A DNA stretch of 64,000 bases from Cystobasidium ongulense (taxonomy: Eukaryota; Basidiomycota; Cystobasidiomycetes; Cystobasidiales; Cystobasidiaceae). The first letter of the stretch is position 1, and each line of letters opens with the position of its first letter. Where the stretch lies: NCBI GenBank assembly GCA_022835595.1, contig BQUP01000005.1, forward strand, positions 1,116,001-1,180,000, read 5' to 3'. This document shows, piece after piece, positions 10,137 through 50,100 of this stretch. The position numbers and the translations under genes are program-made. The notes beneath the pieces were generated by a model. That model did no database searches, was not told the DNA's origin, and saw nothing but the letters and a program-made list of their open reading frames with translations.

Positions 10137-10904
10137 TCAATAATAGTCTTCGTCCGAGTCTTCCTCGTCTTCGTAGATGACCTGAAGACGACGCTCCCTG
10201 AACATGTCGAGCAAGAGCGGGCTTAGAAACTCCTCTTTGGCTTTCGATAGGCGGTAGAAATGACCGTGCAAGATAGTATAGGATCTCATCGCAGAAGGGC
10301 TATATGGTGAACATATTGGTATCAGTCATCGTAGCGCAGGCAGATCAGTACCAAGATAGACTCGCCTGGAAAAGAGGATCAAAGTCTCCGCCTTTTTCTT
10401 TCGCTGGCTCGCCTTCAAATTCTTGATATTGATGAATACGTATTTTCGGATGAGTTTTCTACATGCTGTCAGACTCTGGGGGAGAGGTAGGAGACCATCT
10501 GGGAAGTGTTTCGGTCTCTTTATGTTCGCCATGGCAGCCGCACCATTTTCACCCTCACACAGTCCGACAGTAACGAGGATAGCCTGCCAAAGAGCGAGCT
10601 TTTGTTCCTTGACGCTCAAGGTGGAGTTGTGTGAAGAGACGGATGCAGAATCGGAGAAAAAGTCGTGCAAGATTTGAGAAGAGCTGTCGGAGCCAGCTGG
10701 CGGCGGTGGTGAAATCGAGGTAGTGGCTTTGTGGATGCTCAAGCTCTGCATGGACCCGAGCAGATCGCACCAGGAGGAATCTTGAGAGCTCTCAGATCCA
10801 CTCTGCGATGACGTCTGTATGCACAATACACGTTCAGCATCAACACGTCAGACAAACGCTGTTCGGCGTTGTCAACGCACCGAAGACTTCTTGCGAGAAG
10901 GCAT
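10137..10904 (-). CDS. tandem unknown family, copy A
   Basis: Three exons: 10904-10881, 10814-10366 and 10299-10137. The first exon encodes only MPSRKKSS. The conserved core is SSSQILHDFFSDSASV, then KLALWQAILVTVGLCEGE, then HFPDGLLPLPQSLTACRKLI, then KYVFINIKNLKASQ. The last exon gives SYTILHGHFYRLSKAKEEFL and an acidic tail ending in DEDYY. The same blocks, in the same order and with the same intron positions and phases, occur in the next two genes, so the three are tandem duplicates. Intron 2 has a GC donor (CCAG|GCGAGT), whereas the other copies use GT. I do not recognise the family beyond a resemblance to small basidiomycete proteins of unknown function; no enzyme motif, signal peptide or membrane segment is visible. 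Confidence 0.85.
10300..10365 (-). other. GC-AG intron 2 of copy A
   Basis: Donor TCCAG|GCGAGT, acceptor ATATAG|CCC. The join gives LILFSSPSAMRSYT, equal in length to LLLFPSETKMKRYT in copy B and LLLFANKTEVQEYT in copy C, which fixes the splice site despite the non-GT donor. Confidence 0.85.
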
Positions 10905-11526
10905 GGTCAGGCAACTGGAGGTGTACTGTGAGGCCTGGGTGCTTCTGGATGTGTTGTGAGTATGCAAATCAGAAGAGATGACGAGAAGACAACCTCCACA
11001 AGCATGATTTGCTCGCTCTTGATCAACCTCCCCCGACTTCTTGTCCCTTCACCAAAGCCCCTCCGATTCGCAGGGAGTTGCACAAGTGAGAGAAACGGAA
11101 TTGACGGAGTCAGCGGCAGTCAAGCGATACTAAGCGGTACAAAAGGCGAAACTCTTCTGAAAGCCCGACAGTCAAACGTCGGATCCCATCCAAGCCCGGT
11201 TTCAAGTGAATGAAAAATCTTCAGCAGCTCAACGTGAAACAGGAGCACTGAGTCAAGTCAGCTGAAGCAACGCAGCCAGTGGCATCACAAGCATTTGATG
11301 CTGGGGTGTGTTATTGGCTGCAGTCTTGGAAAATATGCAAACTCTCGCACTTCACCCGTCCCTGCATAGTATAACGGTAGTCATGACGATGGCACTTGCG
11401 CAAGACCAGCGCTTCGCAAGCCATATCTCATTTCCCAACACACTAGAGCAACAATAAGCAGCGACAATCTAACGGTCCACATAGTCAACCTGGCATTTGC
11501 CAGCCCTCAGGTGCAGACAGTAGGGA
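10905..11526. other. intergenic spacer between copies A and B, no gene seen
   Basis: It holds the promoter side of copy A and the 3' flank of copy B. The stretch near 11371 (tagtataacggtagtcatgac) resembles a tRNA D-arm, but no matching T-arm or acceptor stem follows. Confidence 0.5.
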
Positions 11527-12362
11527 TCAGAAAATCATCGTTCTCGAAAGGGGATTCAAGAGCTCGTTCTTGGCTCTATCCAGCTTGAAGAAGCGGTGAT
11601 GCTTCTTAGTGTACCTCTTCATCTTTGTTTCACTGTAGGGATATAGCGGAAGAAACATCAGGCTATCACTCAACACGAGTCTCCAATCGCACTCACCTAG
11701 GGAATAATAGGAGAGCCTCATTATCGATCTGACTTTGCTTGAAGTTTACGATGTTCACGAAGACGTACTCCTTGATGAGGGATCTGCAGCCTTTCAAGCT
11801 GGTCGGTAGTGGGAGAGGGTTCGGTGGAAAATGGGCAGGTCTCCTGAGTCCAGGCATGAGTACGCCTTCGCTACTTTCGCAGACACCGACAGTCACGAGG
11901 ATAGCCTGCCAGAGGGCAAGCTTGTAGGCTCGACTGTCTAGGCTCGAGCTGTCGGAAGCAGGAACAGAGTCTCCAGACTCGGAGAAGAAGGCCATCAAGA
12001 GCTGGGAAGAGCTGTCCGAGCCCGCTGAAGACGCGCCACTGGACAAGCTCGAGGTGCCAGCGCGGGAGATGGGAGCCAGGAACCCGGGGGTGAAGAGGGC
12101 GCCAGTCGAGCGCGATGAGCGAGTCGAGCCATGCGAGGTTGCTGCTGGCGTGTTGATAGTCGGTGTTGCTCTGGTGCTGTTGCTCATAGATGTCTGATTT
12201 CCTGCAATGCTCAGGGCCTGCATCGAGTCGAGGAGGGCATCGCAGGACGAGCCAGTTCCAGAGGTGGATGGTGTGGAGGACTAGAATTACATACAGTTGT
12301 CCATCAGCCATTCTCCCGCTGTTCTGGGCCTCGCCTTCACGCACCTTGGACCGGGCTGGCAT
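11527..12362 (-). CDS. tandem unknown family, copy B
   Basis: Three exons: 12362-12345 (MPARSK), 12280-11697 and 11632-11527. The N-terminus SSTPSTSG...CDALLDSMQALSI aligns with SSTSSQSGSE...CDLLGSMQSLSI in copy A. The core is SSSQLLMAFFSESGDS, KLALWQAILVTVGVCESS, HFPPNPLPLPTSLKGCRSLI and EYVFVNIVNFKQSQ. The last exon carries YTKKHHRFFKLDRAKNELLN and ends RTMIF. Intron 2 is a normal GT-AG intron at the position where copy A has GC-AG. The serine-rich linker between the N-terminal block and the core is longest here and contains a run of small residues. Function unknown. Confidence 0.85.
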
Positions 12363-12827
12363 TGTTGCGAGGTGGCTCTGCGCTGTGAGAAGGGAGCGAA
12401 GAAGAGGTGCCGGAGGTGGGATGGCTGCTGTAGACCAGAGTGTAAGATGGCTCTCCAATCACTGCAGACTTGAAAAGAGTGAAGCAAACCTGCAGGCAAG
12501 CGAATTCCGCGTGTAAAAAGCAGAGCAGTGCGCAGAGCCGTGCTTGGACCGCCAGCCAAAAAGGCACGTGCCCAAAATCAGATCAGCCTCGACGTCCCTC
12601 TCCATCCATTTGTCGAGATAAGAATACCGCTGCTGTCGACCAGATTGAGAGCAGAAAGCAGTCATCTCTGTCACTGAAGCTACCCAGCGAATCAATCATC
12701 AGAATACCGACTATCGTTGCAATAAGCATATCGTACCAGCTAGGCTAAGACGTTGGTCGTAAACAGCTACACGGCGCATTCTTTCGACCATAAAAGAGCA
12801 GGTCTGTCTCATGTGTCACCTGCTAAG
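12363..12827. other. intergenic spacer between copies B and C
   Basis: Promoter side of copy B and 3' flank of copy C. Several short open frames overlap here on both strands, but none continues a domain or has splice support. Confidence 0.5.
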
Positions 12828-13818
12828 TCAGTTCGATGATGAACAGGCGAGAGCCGCCCTGTCGATGGCGACTACAACAACTTTGACTATTCCTCCGACC
12901 TCTACTTTCTTATCCCCTTCTGGCTTGCCCTCTTCAACTACCGGGAGATCGGACGTATACTTGAAGTTGCGCAAGAGTGGGTTGAGAAGGTCTTGCTTGG
13001 CCTTGGTCAACTTAATGTACCGAGAGTATTTCTTGGTGTACTCTTGCACCTCAGTCTTGCTAAGGCCGACCATTTGAATCAGTCAACTTCGACAAGGAAA
13101 AAGCACCTGGAATGAGACACACTTTGCAAACAATAAAAGTGGCTCCCTCTTCATCTGACTCTTCTTGAAGTTCACAATATTCAGAAATACATTTTCCTGG
13201 ATAAGCTTTCTGCATGCTGTGAGGCTTGCAGGTACAGGGAGAGGTGGTTGTGGGAAGTGAGAAGGTGTCTTGACGTCTCTAACGACTTCACCTTCCGCAC
13301 CCTGACAATAGCCCACAGCAACAAGAATAGCCTGCCAGAGCGCGAGCTTTGCTTCCGAAGCATCCAGCTGCAAATGAACTGAACTCGAGAAGGATCCTGA
13401 ATCCGAAAAGAAATCGGATATGAGGTGAGAAGCGCTTTCTGATGCTGAATTTGAAGCTCCGCTTGAGAAGCCCTCAACCGTGTTACCGATGGTCTCGATG
13501 GATTGATCATAGAAATAGCCTGGCGACTCATAAAACGGCCGATATGATTTGGTAGAGCTGAGCGAGGGACTCAAGAGAGGATGATCATCGTCTTGAATAC
13601 TGGGTTTCCTGCTGACGTGCTCTACAGTACTTCGAGACGATGGTGATCGCCTACTTGTGATCTGCAAGTCTTGCAAAGCATGGAGAATGAGGGCTTCTCG
13701 AGTCGCACGAGCTTCGATTCGGGGGCTTCTCTGGAGATCGATGTGGTTAGTAGTCTATTAGAGCTACTTTATTTCTTGCCGAGATCTGAATTACCCAGGG
13801 CTGTTCGGAAAAGGACAT
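12828..13818 (-). CDS. tandem unknown family, copy C (longest)
   Basis: Three exons: 13818-13795 (MSFSEQPW), 13730-13123 and 13059-12828. The core repeats the family blocks: SASHLISDFFSDSGSF, KLALWQAILVAVGYCQGAEG, HFPQPPLPVPASLTACRKLI, ENVFLNIVNFKKSQ. The last exon has YTKKYSRYIKLTKAKQDLLN and a longer C-terminal extension ending ALACSSSN. The N-terminal exon differs from MPxRxK in the other two copies, so copy C has either diverged at the start or gained a different first exon. A start further upstream cannot be excluded. Divergent transcription with the Ehd3 gene gives an 800-base shared upstream region. Confidence 0.8.
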
Positions 13819-30422: not shown

Positions 30423-33400
30423 TTAGGTGCCATTGCTTCGTATAGAATCCGATGCCTCACTATCGCTACTGTCGTCCTCCTCGCCTCCCTGTCGGACATG
30501 CGAAGAACGCAAAGGCGAGGTCTTGATGCTATCTTCGGGACCTAGCGAAGATAGGCGAGATCGCAAGCCTGAGGTGAAACTCCGTCGGCGATCCCGATCT
30601 CCGCTTCTGTCGCCCACGTGAGAAAGCAGGCGCTGTTGTACATGCTGTTGCACGGCATTCTTTGGCTTTCGCGCTGATGTCAGAAGCTGGCCAAGTAAAG
30701 TTGCGCTCTGAGACCAAATGCTGGATTTGAAATCCTTCTTGATATTTTCGTAGAGGTCAAAGTAGGTCCAGATGCGGTTGCAATGTATAATTGTGGGACT
30801 CTTGTATATGAGACCGTACACATCCGGAAGAGTAGTCGACTTGTCGCCCTGTACGCACAGAACAGTCAGCAACCTTGGTCAATTTAATCACGATATACAG
30901 AGGATGCGTCTTACCTTGAAAGACAGACAGAGAACCGTCGGGAATAGCTCTACATGCAAGAAAGTCCGGTTGGCCCGAGCGCGCTCTCTCATATCGTCTG
31001 CATCGAGGTAATCATCGCGCGGAGCGATGTCGCCTATATTTATGCTACTTGGCGTCAAGTCTTCCAAAGGATTGCGTAGCACTGACCTCGGTCGGCTGCT
31101 AGGGAGCGAAACTTGCGAAGCTGAAGCAGAGGGAATGGAGAGTATGCTTGACTTGGCGATGCTGGGCGGACGCTTGGAAATTGTTGGTGCAGGAGCGGAC
31201 AAGCTTTCCGACGAGCGGTTGCGCAGAGCTAGCTGAAGGCGATTGCTTTGACCGGAAGAAGGAGCTAACGATGACGAAGGTGCCCGCATGCCCGCAGGCC
31301 CATTGGTCACAGCCGACGGATCATGTTCGTCCGTATCTTTGTGCTCAATCGGACTGAAGAAGTAGTGCTTGAGCTTGTCGGCCATGCTTTGCTCCATTTG
31401 TAGTCTGATTGGATGCAGGTGCACTTGAAAGTGGTCAATAATTGGAATACCTCCGACCGGGCTGAGCATGCTCCAAATAACTGCTACGAAAATATCCGCC
31501 TTCATGAAGCGTGTCTCCATAACTGCTGGCGAGTATGGGTGTTTGGAAATAATCTCCGAAAAGTAGGGATCTACACCGCTATTGAGAGCAACGAGATCGC
31601 GGATGACCAGGTTGTTAGATATGCCGCCATCGCTGCGATTCTGCCAGCAAAAGTACACGTTGTTGACTGCCACCTTCGCCAACGGCTTGCCATCTCCTTC
31701 ACGCATATGCCACGTGATCTCTTTCGCTCTCGCGTCGAGCCGCATGCCTGTAGTCTTGCCCGAGCTGCGCGAAGCTTGTGAGGACTGCATTGCTTCAAGC
31801 CACGATGTCATGATGTCCTTCCGTTCATTGAATTCGTACATCTGCTGAGTGAGTATGATATACAGGTCTTCTTGGGAGCAGGACTTGTTTTCGAGGCCGT
31901 CGATGGTCCGGTGGTGTCTCCTTCGCAGCGCGCGAAGTTCGTTCTGCTGGTTCTCGACGTTTGTCGCGATATCGACGCTATCGGAAAAGTCTCGCGACAA
32001 TGCCAGCTGCTCTATTTCCTGCGTTCTTGCTTTCTGATTTGGATCCGTGTAGAGTATAAGATTGGTGATTACGTCGTAGATTGCAGCGAAGTGTACGGAA
32101 GTAGCATTAACGGTGAATCGCTCGCACACAACGCTGAAGCGATCCACTGTACGGTCACAGCCGGCGGCGCCACTGTCGCCATGTCCACCAGACTGACCTA
32201 TCAACCGAAGCCGGTTGTTCTTGTCGTAAGTCAACTGTGCGCTTGTGGGCGCAACAATTGTGTCGAGATCCTTCGTATACGCTGTAAGGCCAGCAAGCAA
32301 CTCTAACGGGACAAACGCGTCCGCGTGACTCAGCAAAGTCTCCTTACGGCCGCTTCGCCAACCCCGAAGGTGAGGATAAAAGGCCTGAAGGGCATCGACC
32401 CTGCCGAAACTGCGATGCATGACCACAGCATTGATGGGGTCGTCTGCATGGTCTACGTCGATGATGGAACATATGCGCAGTTGTACAGCTTGCGAGGCTA
32501 TCACTACGGTCGAAGAGTGTCCGCTGATCTCGGAGTACAGACATAATTGCGGTTTGAGAATTGAGACGAGGAAGCTGTTCTGAGACCGCTCGTGAGATCC
32601 GAGTTGTTCCCGTAGAACTGTCATGGGATCAGAGTCGTCTTCCGCTGCCCTCGGTGCATCGGACGAGCTATGTTTGATGCCGTTACTGTCCCGTGGAAGC
32701 TCGCTTTCTTTGCGAGGATCAGTCACCTCTGCTAGGAGAGCGTCCAGTAAGTCCAATGTTTCAGAGTCTTGTGCTGCCGAAACAGCTTCGGTTTTTGAGG
32801 GTCTATTACCCTTGTTATCGTTGACAGCTTGTTCTCGTCCGGTGTAGAAGTTCTTTTTCGTCTCCTTGGCAAAATCTTTGATAAACTTGATCGCTTTAGC
32901 AGTCATGGCATCTGAGAAGTGGGTAGGGTATCAGCAAGGGGGATCGTCCCGAGATGGAGTAAGTAGCGGCAAACACGCACATTTAAAGAAGCGACGCTGG
33001 CGAGAGCTGTAGTAATACCGAAGTAAGATGTCTCGTATCCGCTGCGATACGACGACGTTCGGATTATGGACCATCAAGCGATTGGTCCACTTATCTAGAT
33101 CCTGGAATACGTGGAAATCTGGTATATGCTCTTTATCTAGCATCGTATCTACAAGTTCGGCTTCTTGAGCTGTCCTTTGCGCGCCAGGAGGTAACGATGA
33201 AGTCGATGCTTTGCGTTCTCTGTACGATTGGAAGCGAAGCACGCTCATTTTGGCGACCTGAAGGCGGTTCTGCACATCCTCCACTTCTTTGTTGGGCTAA
33301 GTCATGTCAAGATCGAACTTAGCATCTCCTGTATAGCAAGAGTTCGGCATTTGGTTGTACGTACAGAGTTGGGATCTTGTTGTAGGAGACGGGCTAGTTC

Positions 33401-36400
33401 CTCCTTCAGCTGCGCTACCCGCCCTTGCATAACTTCCAATTGAATGTCCAGCGCATCTGGAATGAATTAGCGTATCAGTGTCTACAATGGAGCATCTTAT
33501 ATATGGGGATACATACCTCTTGCGCGATCGAGCAAGCAATAATGAGACGGTTCCTTGCCAAACTTCGATATTGGGCCCTTTGGGTCTTCCTTCGAAACAC
33601 CAGCCTTACCAAATTCGGCAAGCTTCTCAGCCTCTGGTGTTGAGCCTGGACCAGTGTATACTTTGCCGTCGCGCAAGGGGGGATGCAGATAGTCATGCTG
33701 CGCATAACGTGAATATGTCAAGCGTGGAGTTTTGAGACACGACAGGAGGTGCATGTTTGGCTGACGTTCTCCAAGGACGGTGTAGAGATCTATGTAGTCG
33801 TCTTCATCGACCCATTCCATATCCTCAGAAGAAACGGCTTCGGCCGTATCCATGTTCAGAAAGTCGGTCATGTCCGCGTACCCGCTGTCACTATCCGTGT
33901 CTATCAGGATTGGACAAGTGAATCTGGCTGAAACAACTCGCAGATCCGTGTCCTTGCAGTCGACCTCTACGCGATGAAAAGCTTTGTGCATCCGGATTTG
34001 TACATCTTGAGATTCTTTCTTGCGTGTTCTCGTCTCTTGTTCGCGCTGGTGCATGTCGACATTGAAGTGCTCTAGCCTGCCTTTCACTCCAAGAACAGTG
34101 GAGATGCCCTTGCGCGCATCCTCCGCCACTTCTTGCTTGAAAGTATGAGCAATATAGACTGGCGCCAGCTGTATACGGTATTTAATGGTAGCGCATGATT
34201 TTCCGAACTTTTTGGAAGGAGGTAATGAGCTCTCGAAGATGGGGCCGTGACGAACTGGCAAGCTGAGAGTGCCGTCAAAGAGGTGCCACCAGGCTGAGAA
34301 GTGCACGAATCCATTGGGCGTCAGATGCAGGGTATTCGCTGGCGAATCTGGTTCATTGGCGACGACTGAGATGGAGAAATGGATGAAGTCGGACCGGAAG
34401 GCGCGGTATGAGTCGAGGTGCTGTAAAACCAGATTATTAGATTTGAAGAAGGTGGCGTGCCTATGCAAAGCTCGTTACACACCTTGAAATCAACTCCCAT
34501 AGCATCGAAACCAGATATTGTCTTGACATCATAGTGAGGTCGAAACTCGAATAACCGGCATTGTCTATGGAAGAGTGAACCGCTGCAGTTCTGTTTGCAG
34601 TCATCGTCACGGCAGGTTCGCTCAAAGTGCATACCCAAGCCCCATTTTACGCCTCCCTGGAACTTTGCGCAAACCTTCGATAGCCTTTGCTCTCTCGATT
34701 CGGCTTTGCCGGCATCCGGTACGGGTATACTCCCCGTGGAGAATCGAGCTTGAGTGCGTGGCCTTTCATGCATACGACCGCTGGTGAGCTTGGTGGCATA
34801 GGCAGCGAGATCTATAATGTACAGGTCAGCTTTGGAAGTGAAAATCAACTAACAGGAGCTGGCTTACCTGGAATACCAAGAACAAAACGATCACTCAAAA
34901 TTTGGAAAAACTCCTTGTCTCGATTGTCGAAGCCGATCTTCCATCGTATATCGTCGTGCCAGGAAAGCGAAAAGCCAGCTCCTGAGCCCTGGACGCTATA
35001 TGGGTCTCGAGAGCCTTTCAAGATCAGATGCAAGGGACCCTTGCCTCTGAAGGTAATGTCGATTTGCCAGTGTAAGATCAAGCGAATCTTGTCCCAGAAT
35101 CCTAAGCGTTCGGATGGATCTGGCGGGGGCTTTGTGAGCGAATCCAGCACGCGCATAACGTCCTGTATGGCGGGCTGCACGGAGTTGCCCCATGACAGTC
35201 TCGTGGCGGAGTCGGAGTGAATAGTGATGACGGGGGTAGCATAGAACTTGACTGGCATAGCAGTCCGAGGAACGCGAAAGTAGTAGCCTTCTGATGATCC
35301 CCGTGGTCCACCGTGTTCTGCTGGGACAATCATAGCAGTCACGTGTCGAGTAGAATTGGAACCTGAGAGCTCTTCCGCTATGACGAAGTCAGTCACGAGA
35401 TGCCACGATTGCGTAGCTTCGTCTGCCGTTTTACTGTCATCGACAAACGCAGGGATATCCAGCAATGGGATGGGATAGTCTCGTATGTGCGCTATGGCTT
35501 CGTTCATTTTCCAATCAAGATGGAAAGGAATGTTCAAAGAATATAGAGTGTCTCGCGGGATGCCCTTGCCGATGTCGAACATAAAGTCGCTCAAGCCATC
35601 TCCGTCCAGATCGAATGTGGGCTTAGAGAGTTTAATGTCGACAGCTCTAAAGACTAGCCGCATGAGTGGGGTATCTCCATGATGATTAAGCAATTGAACA
35701 GGCAATTCATGGTCGGCGCTCCGAATATTCCCATACAGATTCTTGAGATGCTTGTCTTCTTCGCGAGTTCGCTGTGATTGAGCATCTCGGATGATTCTGA
35801 TCCACTCCTTGGAGTTGCGCTCGTCTAAACGTTCCTTGATGCGAGCCAGGGAGGCCCGTTTAGGCTGCGCGTGGACGGGGTTGTCCGTGTCATGGTAAGT
35901 TGGATGATGTTCATGCTGCGGTCCATTGTGATCTATCACGTGAACGCCATCGTTCTCACTGGACCTGCGAGTCGAATTCCCCGTTTTCAAGCCGGAAGCC
36001 AGCTCCTCGGCCTCTAGCGCTTTCACCGCCTTTTGATAGAGCTTCTCACGATTCAGGCGGTGGCGCTGTTCTAGCTTACCAGCATTCCACACGAGATTTA
36101 GCTTGGCTTCGAATGGATCATCAGCTGCTTCGAGGACCAGTATCTTCATATCTACTCGGATCTCGGGGATGCGTTTGGGTGATTCAGCACGTGGTTCTAT
36201 AGCGGACGAGAACTTGCCGTGCACAAATTGATGGCTTAGCTGCTTCGATAGTTTGACGAATGTGACTAGGTTATCGACGATCTCCGAGAAAGGATATTTG
36301 CAAGGTATACGCAACCGGGCACCATCACCTTTCAGAATAAAGCTACGTTCCTGTTGCTCGGCATCCTTCTTCATTATCAAAGCCAATTTTCTGAGTCTGA

Positions 36401-39400
36401 TGATGTCCTCCCACAAGCCAACGCAAATGTGACTCTCACCAGCTACGACGCCTGATTCCATCTCTAGCTGTAGATCCTCCTTGTGCGTCGATAACTCCAC
36501 CCGTCTCAAACAGGCGTATAATTTGACCGCATGCGGTAGCGTCCAATAGAGGTGTACTTGCGAAACATTGCACTTGAGTTGTAAATGCGGCTTCGGCTGC
36601 CGTCCAGGCAGTCGTTTCGGTTCAGGGTGCTCAGGCGGCAGAAGCGAGCGTATAGCAGAAAAGGCCAACAGGAAGCAGTACACTTGGAACATTTCAAAGC
36701 GTATCAGGATTTGGGGTATGCGGATGGCCAGACCAATACAATCTTGATGAGCAGGACCATGCGAGCTGTTCGACGGAAAGCGTGAATGGGACGGATGGCT
36801 GCTGTCTTCTTGACCTGGACCGACGTGTCTGGTCCAGAAAGTGATTCTCACATCTATCTCTTCGATAAAGAAGAAATCCCTTACGCGGGCTGCTGAAAAG
36901 CGGGAGAATTTCTTATCTGCCTTTCGCTTCTGGCGCTCGCTGGGCATAGACGGAGATTCGGGTTCGACATGCTCATGGGGAGTGAAAAAGTGATCGCGAG
37001 ATAGTTGGCACCACTTCCAGCCTTTCTTGAAGTCAAATTCTACGTCAGCAGTAGTGCTGCGACCTTGCTCGTTGACGGGAGGCTTTGCCCGCATTATTCT
37101 GTTCTCATTACCCGAATCTTTCAGTGGATTGACCCGCAAACCGCGCATCTGTAGGGTAACGAAGGCTTGGTCTGTTTTGTGCGTTTCATTGAAAACGCTT
37201 TGAGCGTGTGCTCGTAAATCTGGCGGCAGGCCTAGTGGAGCGCGGATGTGTGCGTGCGACTGACCGACCACATAGCGATCTTGTCGATAGCGCTGCACGG
37301 TTAACTGAGATATCCGCATCGCAAGTCCTCTACAGACTCCGGGCATGAATCTAGGGTCAGGACCAGCGATGTAGAGCTCGATATTCGTGATGCCGAGTGA
37401 GAAATGTATGTTTGGGGGGAGGGCTTCAGAAAGAGGCGTCACAGTTGTTCTTGTCTCACTGCGTACATCGACTGGAGTGGGATCGCTGTCTTCTGACCTG
37501 CTGAATGCAGTCGAGCTGGCTAGCGTTTCTGCGTCGTCGGCAAAGTCTGCTTTTTGAGGCTCAGTAGTGAGGTGTAATATAGATGATAAACAGTGATGCA
37601 CATCCATGTTCGAAAGTTCTGATCGTGGTCCGTCACACACGAGACTAACGCTGCCACGCGCATCCCGACTGTCGACCAGGGATAGGAATGCGGCATCGTC
37701 GAGTGTATGCTCGCCTGCACTGATCTCCCGACCGAATATTTCTAGACCAGCAATCACTTCAATAGCTGCGATTGACAGGATATCGTGTCGTTTAGTGGTG
37801 TGGGGCCTCGAGTGTTGCCGGACGTGACCTTGCTTGGTAGGTGGAGGAACGCGACTCCGACTGCGGGGACTACTGCCTTCCGAAGTAGACGTGAAACGAT
37901 CTGAACTCGCTGAGGTAGGATTTGACCGAGTATCACGCGCTTGGGGATTGTGCGAGCTCAGGAGATACACATCGATCTTCTGGAAACTAACAGCGGCGTC
38001 AACAAAGTATACGAAAGGATGATCGATGACTTCTTTCTGTCCGCCTGAATGACTTCCGGCGATTCGGCGAGCATGTTCAGGCATGCGTCCATCATCCGGC
38101 GTGATGAAGCAGAGAAATTCATTCTCCTTGTACAGCTTTGCAGAAAGTGCGACAGGATCCGCCGAGCCCTTTCTACTGGGCAAAGGTTGGATTCCGGGTT
38201 CGGGAACTTGGGCAGAAGGTACGGGTGAAGTCGACAACGACCATTCTTCTTGATCTTCCCCAAGCAGCGGCGAGTCAAACATGCGCTTTCTTGCTTCCTT
38301 TGCTCGCTGCTCCGAGGCTCGCTGACTTTGTGATCCTCTAAACAGGACGTTTGGGATGAAAATACTACCACGCTTGATCTCTTGCCTGAGCTCTCGTCGT
38401 TGGGCTTCTGTGCGATGGACTGGTACATCGGCGTAACGTGTATGTAAAGTGACGGCAAGAGCAGTAATGTGCACGCAGAGAAGCGAAGGGCCAGAGAAGC
38501 CAGGCGAAAGTTCCGCGTCGTCTTCACCTGGACCGAAAGATGCTCGATGCGCCACTTGCGGTCCCAAGATGCGATACCCGCAGCGCCCAAATTCGACAAC
38601 CACAGCCAGTGTTGGCGGGCTGTAAGCCTGCCATGATTTGTGGAGTACATCTGAATCAGAAAGACCGTCGGTTTCATCGTCGAAACTTTCTTGTATAGCT
38701 GCTTTCTTGGCGCTGTGCGCAGTCAAGACCAGAAGTAGGCCCTGCACAATTTCCAGACTTGCTTCGCCATTAACTCCTCCAATATCCGCTTCTAAGACTG
38801 TCAAGCCGGAACTTCGGTCGTCCGAGTAGGTATCTTCGAGATTGGTACTGCTCTCGCGTTGAAATGGGCTGACAGGCTCGACCGAACCGCCCCATGTGCT
38901 TGCATTCAAGTCGTCGCTAGGATTGCTTAAGTACTGCTTCGGCTCGCGGAACAGCGCATCAAGGCGCTGAGGCAGCCAACTCGACGAAAGGTGGAAACCG
39001 GATGGCGATATTTCCAGCATGCGAACAGATTTGGCTAGTTCGAAGAAAGGGTCAGTGAATCAGCATGACCGTCGTCTATAATAAGGCGAACTCACGCGAA
39101 TCAGATTCGACCGCCGCTGCATCGATATCAAATTTTTCGAAGCCGGCTTTAGCAGCGAACTTGAGGATAGTATGCCGGCCAAACCAATGTAAATGTCTTT
39201 CATCTGCTTCCATGGTCTTGCTGACTACGGCTTGCGCAGCCAAGCCTCTCAAGCGACATCCAAGCTGTATCTGTGCAGGAGCCGCTATTGTTGTACTAGG
39301 CTTCTCGGCGTATTCGGGCAAGACTGCCTGAAGCTTGATCAGAGGTATGCTAAAAGTGATAGACTTGAGCATTGCTGCTGGATTTCGGCTTGCTGGAATA

Positions 39401-40881
39401 GGCGGAAGGTCGGGGTATGCATTGAGTGGCAGCGAAGATCCTTCCTCTTCAAACGATGGAGACTCTGAAGCCGTCCGATAGCGAGGCGTCCCTGCTCGGT
39501 GATGCTGTTCACTTGGGTAGCGTGCATGTAAATGGGGCCCTAGGTGAGGACCAAAATGCGGTTGTGGATGTGGACTTATCGTACCCTCTACCCTGCTGAC
39601 TACTTCCAGAAGGCTGTTCAAGCGAATCTTGATGGATGAAGGCAGTAAACCTCCAGCAACTCCACCAGTCGAGGTAGTAACAAGCTTTTCGTCTTTCCCA
39701 AAGGTGGACGAAGTCCGCAGAAAAGCGAATGAAAGATCCAGTATAGTCTTTCTCGGTTCTAGTTCACCAGCGTCGTTGCGATGGTACAGACCGGCCATGC
39801 CAATGGCAGGGTCAAAGTTGGCTTGCGCTTCGATGAGCAATGGACCCGTCATCTCCAAAGCTCGACTTTCTGAAGCTGCCGATTTCCAGGAATGTGCTTT
39901 ACTATCAGATTTAGGCACGTCTTGGGCATTGAGCGAAAGCTGCTCGAGTCGGGCCCAGAGGCCGACATAGCTTCTGTTTCGCCTGACCAACTCTCCGCCT
40001 GCTCTGACCAAACCTATCTTCAGCGAGGTCTTGATCTGAGGTATATCAAGAGTAATGTCGGTGACTTCGAGTGCTAGAAAAACACTCATCAAGCTGCATC
40101 TTCGACCGAAAGAGTTGATCTGGGTCAGAAGCGGGGCCACTATGCGGTGGCGGAAGACACGTGTTGCACGGCTGAGCTTTCGAGAGAGACTCTTGCGGCT
40201 GGCCTCTGGGAGCGAGCGTACTAGAGCGGTTCGTATACGACGGCGGATGTGGTGTATTGTTTTTATAGTGTAAAGAAATAGCTGGCCGAGCTGGCGTAGT
40301 GCGGATGGGGAGGTGTGATGGGCGGGTGGCGAATTATTCTTTTGCGAAAAGGCGAGGTTGTTCGGGCTGGGTGTGGTTGTGAATGGCCGAGGGCGTAGAG
40401 GAGATGAAGGAGAGAGATGTGAATCGTCGAGGGTGGTGTCGGCTGAAGTGTGGTCCATTGCCAATGAACTGTCTGCGCCAGTCTCTCTACTTGGAGCGAG
40501 ACGCAGCGAGACGGTGACGCCTTTGATGACGAGACCGAGCCATGCAAGACGGATGTCGTTGTCCTTTGCGCCTCGTCCTCGCAGAGTGAGGGATATGCGC
40601 TGTATGTGTACTCGCTGGATCTTTGCAGATCTAGTACCGGCAGCAGCATGGCGGATGATGCTCCACTCGAGGTCGTTCAGCGAAGCCCATCCGACGTGGC
40701 CGACGGAGACGTGGGCGTGGAGGAAGCGGTTGCATACGACGGAGAGCAGTAGGCGTGCAACGGCCCATAGGAGAGCGAGTGCTGCTGTCCAGGCCAGCAG
40801 CGATGCGAGTTGGGGGAGTCCGGGTATGAGCGAGGCAGGATGGGTGGGCAGCCAGCTTTCGAGTGCGGCGAAGCGGGGCAT
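30423..40881 (-). CDS. FMP27: Fmp27/Hob/BLTP2 bridge-like lipid-transfer protein
   Basis: A protein of roughly 3,000 residues in nine or so exons, the largest gene here. I choose the ATG at 40881 (caccATGCCCC, MPRFAALESW); an upstream in-frame ATG at 40947 would add 22 polar residues. The N-terminus has a membrane helix (ASLLAWTAALALLWAVARLL) that anchors it in the ER, then the first repeating beta-groove unit (VGHVGWASLNDLEWSI). The diagnostic block GFWDKIRLILHWQIDITFRG, GKGPLHLILKGSRDPYSVQG, SGAGFSLSWHDDIRWKIG lies mid-protein. The C-terminal part has AMTAKAIKFIKDFAKETKKN and GLIYKSPTIIHCNRIWTYFD. Family members form long hydrophobic channels at ER-plasma membrane contacts and move phospholipids. 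The C-terminal tail is Ser/Asp-rich with basic patches, a likely membrane- or kinase-contact region. Stop at 30425-30423. Confidence 0.93.
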
Positions 40882-41290
40882 GGTGTTGTGATTGTCGTTG
40901 TCTGTGGATGAAGCTGAGCTGTGTCCATCATCAATGACATTAACCATTCTCAAGCATTACTCACCTCGAATAGCTAATAATGCACGACAGTCGCGATCAC
41001 CATCGAGGATGGGAGAGCAGCTCGAGCCGGGCCAGCAGCAGCAGGGCGGACAGCGACTAGACGGGTGTGCTCGTCGTGGTCAGTCGGCGTGGTCCAGCTG
41101 AGCCAGCTGCTTCACCGCGCACCATGGTGGAGAAGCAAGCTCGAGTTGGAGGGCGGTCAACGGCGAGGATGGCCATCCAGAGGCTCTTGTTCTCGCTCCA
41201 ACCACCGCATCGCATTCCAAGTGGTGTCCTTCATCCTCACACCCCACCCTCGTCCAGTCGACTGCTAGAGTCCTGGAAGTGTCGTCAACC
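40882..41290. promoter_or_regulatory. divergent promoter region FMP27/ARC40
   Basis: Both flanking genes are transcribed outward. A short CAG run (cagcagcagcag) occurs near 41034. No other element is clear. Confidence 0.5.
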
Positions 41291-42927: not shown

Positions 42928-44117
42928 CTAAATGTCACCCAACTTCTCTCTGATCTTGTCTACAATATCTAAATATGCATCTGTCGCTGGACTGTCGGGA
43001 TACTCGTCGATGAAGCTTGTGCCATAATCACATGATTTCCCTATCCGTGGGTCGAGGGGCACCTTGCCGAGTAGGGTGAGGTCCATCTCTTTGCACAATG
43101 CATCTGCACCTCCAGTTGATGGGATGAATATATCCGACTGACCGTGGCATGATGGACATACGAATCCGGACATGTTCTCGACGACTCCTATGATTGGAAT
43201 ATTCACTTTCCGACAAAAGTCGATTTCCTTGCGCACATCTTGTAGAGCCACTTCTTGTGGCGTCGTGATTACTATCGCTCCGTCTATTCCGGATTCTTTG
43301 AGGTATTGGACGATGGAGAGATGTTCGTCCGATGTTCCAGGGGGTGTGTCGATGAGGAGATAGTCCAGATGATCACCCCAATCCACATCTTTGAGGAACT
43401 GCTTGATAAGACCGTTCTTTTTTGGTCCTCGCCAGATGACAGCGTCGCTCGAGGAGGGCAAAAGGAAGCCAATTGACATGACACAGAGGTTGTCCATGAC
43501 GTAGAGAGGCGACCAACCTGCTGAGGTGGCATGCAGCTTCGAGTCTTGCAGGCCTAGCATGAGGGGTATCGAGGGTCCACAGATATCGACGTCCATCACG
43601 CCAGTCTGGAGATCCTCGTCGCTTGCTAGTGCCCAGCCTAGCGCAGTTGTGAAGGTCGACTTGCCTACACCACCTTTGCCAGAGAGGATGAGAATCTTGC
43701 GCTTGACTGTGGACATGCGCTGCTTTACGAGGGGTAGGTCTGGGTCTGGCCCTTTGGGCGCTGACTGGCATGCGTCTTGGTTGGGGCATCCGGCGCATGC
43801 GTCTGCTCTGCCAGCGTCTAGGGACTCGGTGCCTGCGTTTGCATTGGTGTTTGATTGAAGAGATTAGAAGTATAGATGGTGGCCAATTTTCCCAAAGATG
43901 AATCAGCTATGTGGTGGAACCTGGACAGCGAACAAGGCATGCATACCGGGACAGTGTTCGGGCGCATTCTCAGGCTGGAGAGCGTCAGAGATCACCCAGC
44001 ATGTCAGCTTGACTGGAAGCTCGCAAGTGTAGAGTGACCCACCTTGTCTGCCGGAAGAAGCGTCGCTGTCGGCTGGAATGGCTGCGGCTGGCGGAGGTCC
44101 ATGACGGCAGCAGCCAT
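42928..44117 (-). CDS. NBP35: cytosolic Fe-S cluster scaffold P-loop ATPase Nbp35
   Basis: Three exons. I choose the ATG at 44117 (gcgcc[18 protein letters not shown]); the Met five codons later is possible. Splicing gives [20 protein letters not shown] and CPNQDAC, which is the C-X13-C-X2-C-X5-C ferredoxin-like motif that separates Nbp35 from Cfd1. The Walker A is [12 protein letters not shown], Mrp motifs are [14 protein letters not shown] and [15 protein letters not shown], and the bridging cluster site is [14 protein letters not shown]. Nbp35 with Cfd1 assembles 4Fe-4S clusters for cytosolic and nuclear proteins, including DNA polymerases and helicases. Stop at 42930-42928. Confidence 0.96.
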
Positions 44118-47112: not shown

Positions 47113-50100
47113 ATGCCGCCTGCTCGCAAGCCTGAACCAGGCAACCCTGTGTGGAGTGCGTGGGTGGTCTGGTGCATGCTGTCCATGGCTGGAGCTGACG
47201 GCTGTATTGGCGCGTCCCAGTCGGATGGCTGCGAGAGTGGGAGAAGGAGACGGCTGAGAAGAGCGAGCACATGCCAAAGGTGTGTAGATGCGCCCGCTGA
47301 CGGCGCATGCCAGTCACCAGGCTGAGTGCTGCTGTCTGGCCACCTGGCCATTCCACCGGCAACACAGGCGATCCGCAAAGCCATCAAGAGCTTCGAGCAG
47401 TGTCCGGTATGCCCTTGTCGGATATTGTAGACTATGTCCATGCTCACTCTGCGTATCCTCCAGGTACCCATGGACCATCCAGCGAGTTCTGTTGCTCTGC
47501 AGAATGTCGGCGAAAAGGTTGGCCACAACAGTCATTGAACATGCGAATAGGCCATGTCACGGCTCATGCTGCTCGAATCTACCTTTCGTAGATCTCCCAA
47601 TATCTAACCAAACGACTCAAAGCATATTGCGAGGAGAATAACATGGAGATGCCTCGAATGGCTCAAAACACTTTCGAGGGCGAGGCAGCCAAGATCAACA
47701 AGAAGAAGCGCAAGAATGGCGAGGGCCAGGAAGATGACGGCGCTCCAGCTGCTTCTGGATCTGGACACCGTGATTCAGATGGAGAAGATGCCGAAATCCT
47801 GACCTCTCCACCCAAGAAACCTCGCAAGTCCAAGCCGTACGCTCCAAGAGTAAAGTCTGGTCCATGGGCGATCCTCATTGGTCTCGCTACCTTTGGCGTG
47901 GGGGCGTGGAAGAGCGAAGCCGAAATTGTAGAGCGTGCAGACCCCTTCTATCAAGACGACGGTCAGTCACTCAAAGACAGCTCGACCGGTGGCGGCGCGG
48001 GGTCGAGATTCTATACAGGCTGGAGCAGCGTGAGTCACACGCCCACACGACAGTCATTATAAGATCTGACATCAAATCCTCTAGTCGAAGACCCTATTCA
48101 CGAAAGGCTACATGGAGAAAAAGTCGAGGAATCCAGTCTTGTACCAAATCACATACGAAGGTAAGCTACCACGCCGTCCGTCCAGTCCATTACTATAGCT
48201 AATCTGACCCGGATGTATGACTAGGTTGGAAGATTGCTCGCAAAGCAGTGAGGAATGCGAAGCGTAATAATGATATCGACTTCGATGCTCGAAGGGTGCT
48301 GCCAGAGTTTGACACTGAAGACGAGGAGAGTGAGAACGATCAGAGTAACACGGAAAATCGGCCAGTCGCTGGTACTTCTGCCTCTGCAAAGACAAAGTCT
48401 GCAGCACAAGTTCAGAGCAATGACAAAGGAAAAGGCAAGGCCAGAGAAGCGCCAGTGACAGCTGCAGACGTGTCGACCCAGAGACGTGTATCAGACACTG
48501 GCGCTATTTTGCCTACCGATCCGGCGGGTAAGCCAGGAGTCACATCCTACCCAAAACCAATACGCAACTCCTCTGACACCACCCTTCTGTGGTAACAGCC
48601 CCCTTCCTTTTTGCGTATCTTACAGAAGATAACGTGAGAGTCACTACACAAGACAAAGCTGATGCTCGTATTTGTACGGAGAAATGTAAGTGAATAAAAG
48701 TGACTGTAACAAAAATTCTGCTGACTGGTCTCTTATTAACAGTCACAACCCTATTTCGCGTAGAGATACGACAATGCCAAGCCAAGCACATATTCGCAAA
48801 GAAGAACGTTGTCGGTGAACCTCTACCGGTGTTCCGTTCCAGTGCTCCTGGACCAGAAGGTCCAACCTTCTCAGCATATCTGCGAGCTCAGGCTGCTCCG
48901 CATGCTTGTCCTACATTCGCCTCGCTCAAAGCACTTCCCAAAGCATCTACTGCTTCAACCTCATTGAGCCCGAGGCGACCCTCGTCTTCGCAGTCGTCCG
49001 CTCAGATCGTCATTCCTGATAAGAGCAACAGTACACAGCGCAGCAACGTACCTCCTGCGATGAACCTTGCGTCTGCGAGCACGTCTACCGCCCAGACCTC
49101 TTCGTCAAGATTCGTTCGAGCTCCCCCAGCTGTGTCGCGCGCCAGCAGCCCAGAAATCATCGAGCTAGAGGAACCAGCGCCGGTACCTTTACGAGAGAAA
49201 ATGCTGCGAGCGGCTGAGGCACGCACAAACCAGCCATCTTCCTCAAGTCCTGCCAAGATAGATACCAAAGGTAAAGGCAAGGCTGTTTTACCCAATGCTT
49301 TTGACATCATGCAAGCCGCCGCTGCGGCAGATAGAGGGGCTTCAGACTCCGTGGCTCCCACGGTTCAAATGACTGCCACTGCAGACGGCCACTTCATACC
49401 CGACATCGATGCTCTCATCTGTGAAGTTTGGAAGCCTCATGAATATACTGTACATCTGGTTATCGACAACCGCGAACAGCCTGGTCTCAGCAGCAAGAAA
49501 CTAGAAGGTATGTTGACTGCAAAGGGAATCGCATGGGAAGCTAGAGCTCTTGCAATGGGCGATGCCATCTGGCTGGCAAAGAACAAGGCCACTGGAGCTG
49601 AGGTAGTTCTGGACGCCTGCCTTGAGCGCAAGAGGCTCGACGATCTTCTGAGTAGCATGAGAGGTAGGCGACGCCATTGTCTCTTACGGATCACAACTCT
49701 GCTGATTTGTTTTGATACAGATGGCCGATACATGGAGCAAAAGAATCGCATGGTACACAGTGGGATTTCCAAACTGGTGAGTACAACGATTATCTCCACA
49801 TTGCTTGGTGTCACGCTGAATGTGTAGAAATATCAGATATACCTGGTCGAAGAACACGATTCCAAGAAAGCAATGGAGACCTGGGGCCGTCAGATCTGGA
49901 CCATGAAGTCGTCTTTGCAGATTACAGAGTACGTGGAATCTGCTGAAAAGAGGGTACGGGAAGTTGGAGACGCTGACATATCACATTCCAGTAATTTTAC
50001 TGTCCATATTGCCTGGAATACAACCGAGGCTTGTAATTACCTGGCAAGATTGACCAAGACCTTCATTGAAATATTCCAAGTGAGTGTATCGCTATACGAA

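What the first reader, a model, noticed from the sequence alone, without database searches (positions are those of the whole stretch)
10137..13818. Three tandem copies of an unrecognised three-exon protein family
Copies A, B and C lie head to tail on the minus strand and share the blocks KLALWQAILV, HFP..PLP.P.SL..CR.LI and VF.NI.N.K.SQ, plus a C-terminal Y...Y.L.KAK module. Intron positions and phases are the same in all three. The proteins have no enzyme motif, signal or membrane span, and the spacing between the conserved blocks is held while linkers vary. Recent or repeated duplication of an unknown gene points to lineage-specific selection. I recognise the family only vaguely, as small basidiomycete proteins of unknown function.
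Basis: partly seen in the sequence, partly recalled or inferred. Interest (0 to 1): 0.75.

Follow-up and report, generated by a model that had tools for sequence, protein, structure and literature searches.

The report
Three old tandem fungal gene copies
Three neighbouring genes in what looks like a fungal genome encode related small proteins of unknown job; the copies are real but old, and nothing found here shows that they are more than an ordinary uncharacterised gene family.

Summary
Three homologous three-exon genes lie head to tail on the minus strand at 10137-10904 (A), 11527-12362 (B) and 12828-13818 (C), encoding 211, 235 and 287 aa. Each protein finds the other two copies with best E-values of 5e-28 to 1e-35. 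Intron 2 has the same alignment column and phase in all three; intron 1 is phase 0 in all three. No fourth copy lies in the window. 'Recent duplication' is not supported: synonymous sites are saturated or nearly so (pS 0.67-0.80) while the core keeps pN 0.26-0.33, so these are old paralogues under purifying selection. Pfam, NCBIfam, PHROGs, PDB sequence and PDB fold searches gave nothing significant, but model confidence was low and no fungal proteome could be searched, so 'unrecognised' means only 'not in these libraries'. From memory the core resembles uncharacterised proteins widespread in fungi; no call tests that. My best guess is small, soluble, non-enzymatic regulators: a basic helical core behind a Ser-rich arm with two short motifs, one fitting a nuclear-export pattern. 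The mechanism is inference. Interest is low.

The parts
10881..10904 (-). copy A exon 1 (MPSRKKSS)
   Evidence: the first 12 residues resemble those of copy B, 0 of 300 shuffles as good
10366..10814 (-). copy A exon 2
10137..10299 (-). copy A exon 3 with stop codon
10300..10365 (-). copy A intron 2, GC-AG type, 66 nt
12345..12362 (-). copy B exon 1 (MPARSK)
11697..12280 (-). copy B exon 2
11527..11632 (-). copy B exon 3 with stop codon
13795..13818 (-). copy C exon 1 (MSFSEQPW); least certain exon, not similar to A or B, but exon 2 of C has no in-frame ATG before codon 193
13123..13730 (-). copy C exon 2
12828..13059 (-). copy C exon 3 with stop codon; carries the longest C-terminal extension
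10734..10760 (-). copy A NES-like motif LGSMQSLSI (residues 27-35)
12206..12232 (-). copy B NES-like motif LDSMQALSI (residues 23-31)
13659..13685 (-). copy C NES-like motif LHALQDLQI (residues 24-32)
10647..10691 (-). copy A acidic-aromatic block SDSSSQILHDFFSDS
11975..12019 (-). copy B acidic-aromatic block SDSSSQLLMAFFSES
13398..13442 (-). copy C acidic-aromatic block SESASHLISDFFSDS

Best explanation
Three old tandem paralogues of a small, soluble, intracellular protein family without catalytic activity. Shown: homology, shared gene structure, constraint on the core, and no match in the libraries searched. Inferred: the basic core (KLALWQ to the AK..LL end) is a small bundle of about five helices that binds a partner, protein or nucleic acid. 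The Ser-rich N-terminal arm is disordered and carries two short motifs, an amphipathic motif of the CRM1 export pattern and an acidic-aromatic block (S[DE]S.S..[LI]..FFS[DE]S in outline) that could be a phosphorylation-controlled docking or activation-like site. The copies would then be nucleo-cytoplasmic regulators or adaptors that share the core and differ in their arms and tails.
For: Homology and gene structure. Third-position differences of 0.56-0.66 against 0.19-0.31 at second positions in the core, 108 codons. pI from KLALWQ to the end 9.3-10.0; Ser is 24-34% of the part before it. The only match to [LIVMF]xx[LIVMF]xx[LIVMF]x[LIVMF] before the core lies at residue 27, 23 and 24 in A, B and C; shuffles of the arm before the FFS block contain the pattern in 0.4%, 2.3% and 11% of 5000 cases. 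Helices are predicted over KLALWQAILV, SLTACRKLI and NIVNFKKSQ or their equivalents in both models, and over KTEVQEYTKKY and KAKQDLLNPLLR in the one model that holds them (there at pLDDT mostly under 50). No enzyme or other domain match.
Against: No fold match better than E 5.7, and both models are too poor for the fold to be trusted (mean pLDDT 47.5 and 62.2). The export pattern is loose: copy C alone would show it by chance in about one shuffle in nine, C has two further matches in its tail, and in none of the three pairwise arm comparisons was this block the best 12-residue match. No expression, localisation or partner data exist here.
Confidence: 0.3

Rival explanations
1. Divergent members of an uncharacterised protein family that is widespread in Dikarya, with no special function in this lineage; the tandem arrangement is an old local duplication and nothing more. 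(Compatible with the best explanation as to mechanism, so the two confidences do not exclude each other.)
For: The spacing W.Q..l...G ... P.Sl..C+.li ... vNI.n ... F.s...m..YT.......l..AK...l..LL fits proteins that I recall from many ascomycete and basidiomycete genomes (recalled, from no call). The old age of the copies fits a long-standing family.
Against: Not testable here: no fungal collection. A search of 5.39 million papers for six short sequence words, two from the window family and four recalled, found one paper, on human milk bacteria (listing only).
Confidence: 0.6
2. Transcription-linked or nucleic-acid-binding proteins: the basic core binds DNA or RNA and the acidic FFSDS block acts as an activation-type motif.
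For: Core pI 9.3-10.0; acidic-aromatic block kept in 3 of 3.
Against: No DNA- or RNA-binding domain in Pfam; no PDB relative by sequence (best E 0.82) or fold (best E 5.7).
Confidence: 0.2
3. Rapidly evolving secreted effector or a conflict element (for example a killer-driver type gene) in tandem.
For: Small proteins in tandem copies without known domains.
Against: No hydrophobic N-terminus: the highest 19-residue mean hydropathy near the start is 0.14. The core is conserved, pN 0.26-0.33 with pS 0.70-0.85, which is not the pattern of fast positive selection.
Confidence: 0.05

Closest known systems
Uncharacterised Dikarya-wide helical proteins (recalled; no accession, from no call)
   Same: recalled order of blocks: W/L-Q helix, P.Sl..C+..l, vNI.D, F.s...l..YT, AK..LL
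   Different: not compared; the window copies have N where I recall D two places after vNI
SRA1 (PF07304)
   Same: a 31-residue stretch of copy A scores 11.8 bits, E 0.2
   Different: far below the curated cut-off of 23.3 bits; the other two copies and all isolated cores do not match; taken as chance
PDB 5xyw chain C, deposited as GD21652 (recalled as a Deadlock fragment)
   Same: 22 residues, KLA.WQ.IL.T.G, E 0.82
   Different: short and not significant; no alignment outside that helix

Membership tests
Tandem paralogue group | significant similarity between copies | tested here: met
   tblastn best E 5e-28 to 1e-35 between copies, 5e-23 to 2e-30 with low-complexity filter
Tandem paralogue group | shared intron positions and phases | tested here: met
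   intron 2 column 220 phase 2 in 3 of 3; intron 1 phase 0 in 3 of 3, columns 8-10
Recent tandem duplication | low synonymous divergence | tested here: not met
   pS 0.67-0.80 whole length, 0.70-0.85 core
SRA1 (PF07304) | score above the curated cut-off | tested here: not met
   11.8 against 23.3 bits, one of three proteins
Recalled Dikarya-wide uncharacterised family | significant profile match to fungal members | not testable with these tools
   no fungal genome or proteome collection; viral and prokaryote collections gave 0 confirmed relatives
CRM1-exported proteins | hydrophobic spacing pattern of the export signal | tested here: inconclusive
   pattern starts at residue 23-27 in 3 of 3, but it is loose
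CRM1-exported proteins | export blocked by CRM1 inhibition | not testable with these tools
   needs microscopy
Secreted effectors | N-terminal hydrophobic signal sequence | tested here: not met
   no hydrophobic window near the N-terminus by Kyte-Doolittle; no signal-peptide program was run

The most novel reading that the evidence does not exclude
A fungus-specific domain with a fold not yet solved, used in locally duplicated nucleo-cytoplasmic regulators in which an export-type motif and an acidic FFSDS block are kept while the rest of the arm turns over.
Probability: 0.15. Interest if true: 0.45.

Novelty: new member of a known kind. Interest (0 to 1): 0.2.

Why it matters
Small fungal families without domain annotation are common (general knowledge); this one is a clean, well-delimited set of three paralogues with conserved motifs, useful as seeds for a profile and a deep-alignment fold. 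By itself it does not change any open question.

Tried and rejected
Tried without result: own-genome search (no genome held); scans of the viral and prokaryote genome collections with two profiles each (117, 58, 171 and 165 pattern matches, none confirmed as a relative; each scan looked for two short peptide patterns only); PDB by sequence; PHROGs and NCBIfam with the three cores; fold search of both models in the PDB (best E 5.7 and 9.8); shared promoter words (five 7-mers against 3.99 expected, 35 of 100 shuffles as many; no 8-mer); literature (listings and starts of abstracts only, no paper opened; none of the listed titles is on this family, and one search listed 10 of 5,097).

Rejected: recent duplication; secreted effector; SRA1 kinship; use of either AlphaFold model as a fold (mean pLDDT 47.5 and 62.2).

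Full report
What is there. On the minus strand the window holds three gene models that translate without interruption after removal of two short introns each: A (10904 to 10137, 211 aa), B (12362 to 11527, 235 aa) and C (13818 to 12828, 287 aa). Intron lengths are 66/66, 64/64 and 64/63 nt. Phases are 0 and 2 in all three. Intron 2 sits at the same alignment column; intron 1 sits at columns 8-10, close to the start, where C can hardly be aligned. The second intron of A has a GC donor. Exon 2 of C has no in-frame ATG until codon 193, so an upstream exon is needed for C too, but its sequence (MSFSEQPW) is unlike that of A and B.

Is it more than chance? Yes. In tblastn searches of the window with each protein, the other two copies come up with best E-values from 5e-28 to 1e-35, or 5e-23 to 2e-30 with the low-complexity filter on. 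A profile of the three cores lists exactly six ORFs with significant scores, the second and third exons of the three genes; the next best ORF has E = 2. The profile was made from the same sequences, so it serves to show that there is no recognisable fourth copy in the window, not as independent proof. All three arms before the core are rich in Ser (24-34%) and the part from KLALWQ to the end is basic, pI 9.3-10.0. Two of the four quoted sequence blocks are exact; the second needs one alternative residue, and the C-terminal one is exact in none of the three, the shared form being YT.......[KR]L..AK.

How old? Nei-Gojobori counts give pS 0.67-0.80 over all aligned codons (185-233 per pair) and 0.70-0.85 in the core (108 codons), against pN 0.32-0.42 and 0.26-0.33. 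Synonymous sites are saturated or nearly so: for whole length and core, dS is undefined for A-B and B-C and 1.7-2.0 for A-C. The copies are old and the core has been constrained. The upstream regions (600, 465 and 600 nt) share no 8-mer, and five 7-mers where 3.99 are expected from shuffles. Introns keep some similarity in two of six comparisons (z 4.75 for intron 1 of A and B, 4.62 for intron 2 of A and C); part of that must be splice signals, but it is a result that does not sit easily with full saturation.

What is it? Nothing significant came from Pfam, NCBIfam, PHROGs or PDB sequences. Scans of viral and prokaryotic DNA confirmed no relative, which is expected of a eukaryotic family. AlphaFold with four or three rows gave low confidence: mean pLDDT 47.5, pTM 0.45 for the longer construct, which contains read-through intron residues, and 62.2, pTM 0.53 for the exon-2 core. 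Both place helices over KLALWQAILV, SL..CR.LI and NI.N.K.SQ; the longer one also over the two exon-3 blocks, at pLDDT mostly under 50. Foldseek against the PDB gave only E of 5.7 and worse. From memory the order of conserved blocks resembles uncharacterised proteins found widely in ascomycetes and basidiomycetes; I name this as a lead only.

Two short motifs survive in the otherwise variable arm. One is a hydrophobic pattern of the CRM1 export type at residue 27, 23 and 24 of A, B and C, the only such match before the core in each; shuffled arms contain one in 0.4, 2.3 and 11% of cases. Against this: the best ungapped 12-residue match of the arm of A with that of C was no better than shuffles (287 of 300 as good), B with C was marginal (13 of 300), A with B clear (0 of 300), and in none of the three was the export-type block the best match. 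So the motif in C is either a conserved remnant or partly chance. The other is an acidic-aromatic block ending in FFS[DE]S, kept in 3 of 3.

Surroundings. The nearest ORFs with Pfam matches are a class-III aminotransferase and a Prp3_C protein on one side and an ECH_2 hydratase family gene on the other; further away are L21, Ysc84, Dus, M28 peptidase, ribonucleotide reductase small chain, a NUBPL-type P-loop NTPase and Hobbit/FMP27 (14 of the 19 ORFs scanned had a match). With the short introns of these three genes this points to a fungal chromosome (inference); the division was not tested.

Verdict. A correct and careful observation of an ordinary kind: an old tandem trio from a small protein family without annotation in the libraries searched. 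The functional proposal, nucleo-cytoplasmic adaptors or regulators, is inference with low confidence.

Noticed in passing
10300-10365 (minus strand): Intron 2 of copy A uses a GC-AG splice pair where the other two copies have GT-AG at the same place.
   Followed up: partly
12843-12899 (minus strand, C residues 265-283): The C-terminal extension of copy C has a hydrophobic stretch (mean Kyte-Doolittle 1.84 over 19 residues) that A and B lack; it holds charged residues and is a weak membrane candidate at best.
   Followed up: no
10815-10880, 12281-12344, 10300-10365, 13060-13122 (minus strand): Intron 1 of A and B, and intron 2 of A and C, are more alike than shuffles (z 4.75 and 4.62) although synonymous sites are saturated; it could be splice signals, gene conversion or chance.
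   Followed up: no
30891-40956 (minus strand): A large Hobbit/FMP27/BTLP2 family gene; three of its four long ORFs match PF10344.
   Followed up: no
42931-43863 (minus strand): NUBPL-type P-loop NTPase, probably NBP35 by its N-terminal Cys motif (name recalled).
   Followed up: no
48694-49824 (plus strand): ERCC4 nuclease domain, probably MUS81 (name recalled).
   Followed up: no
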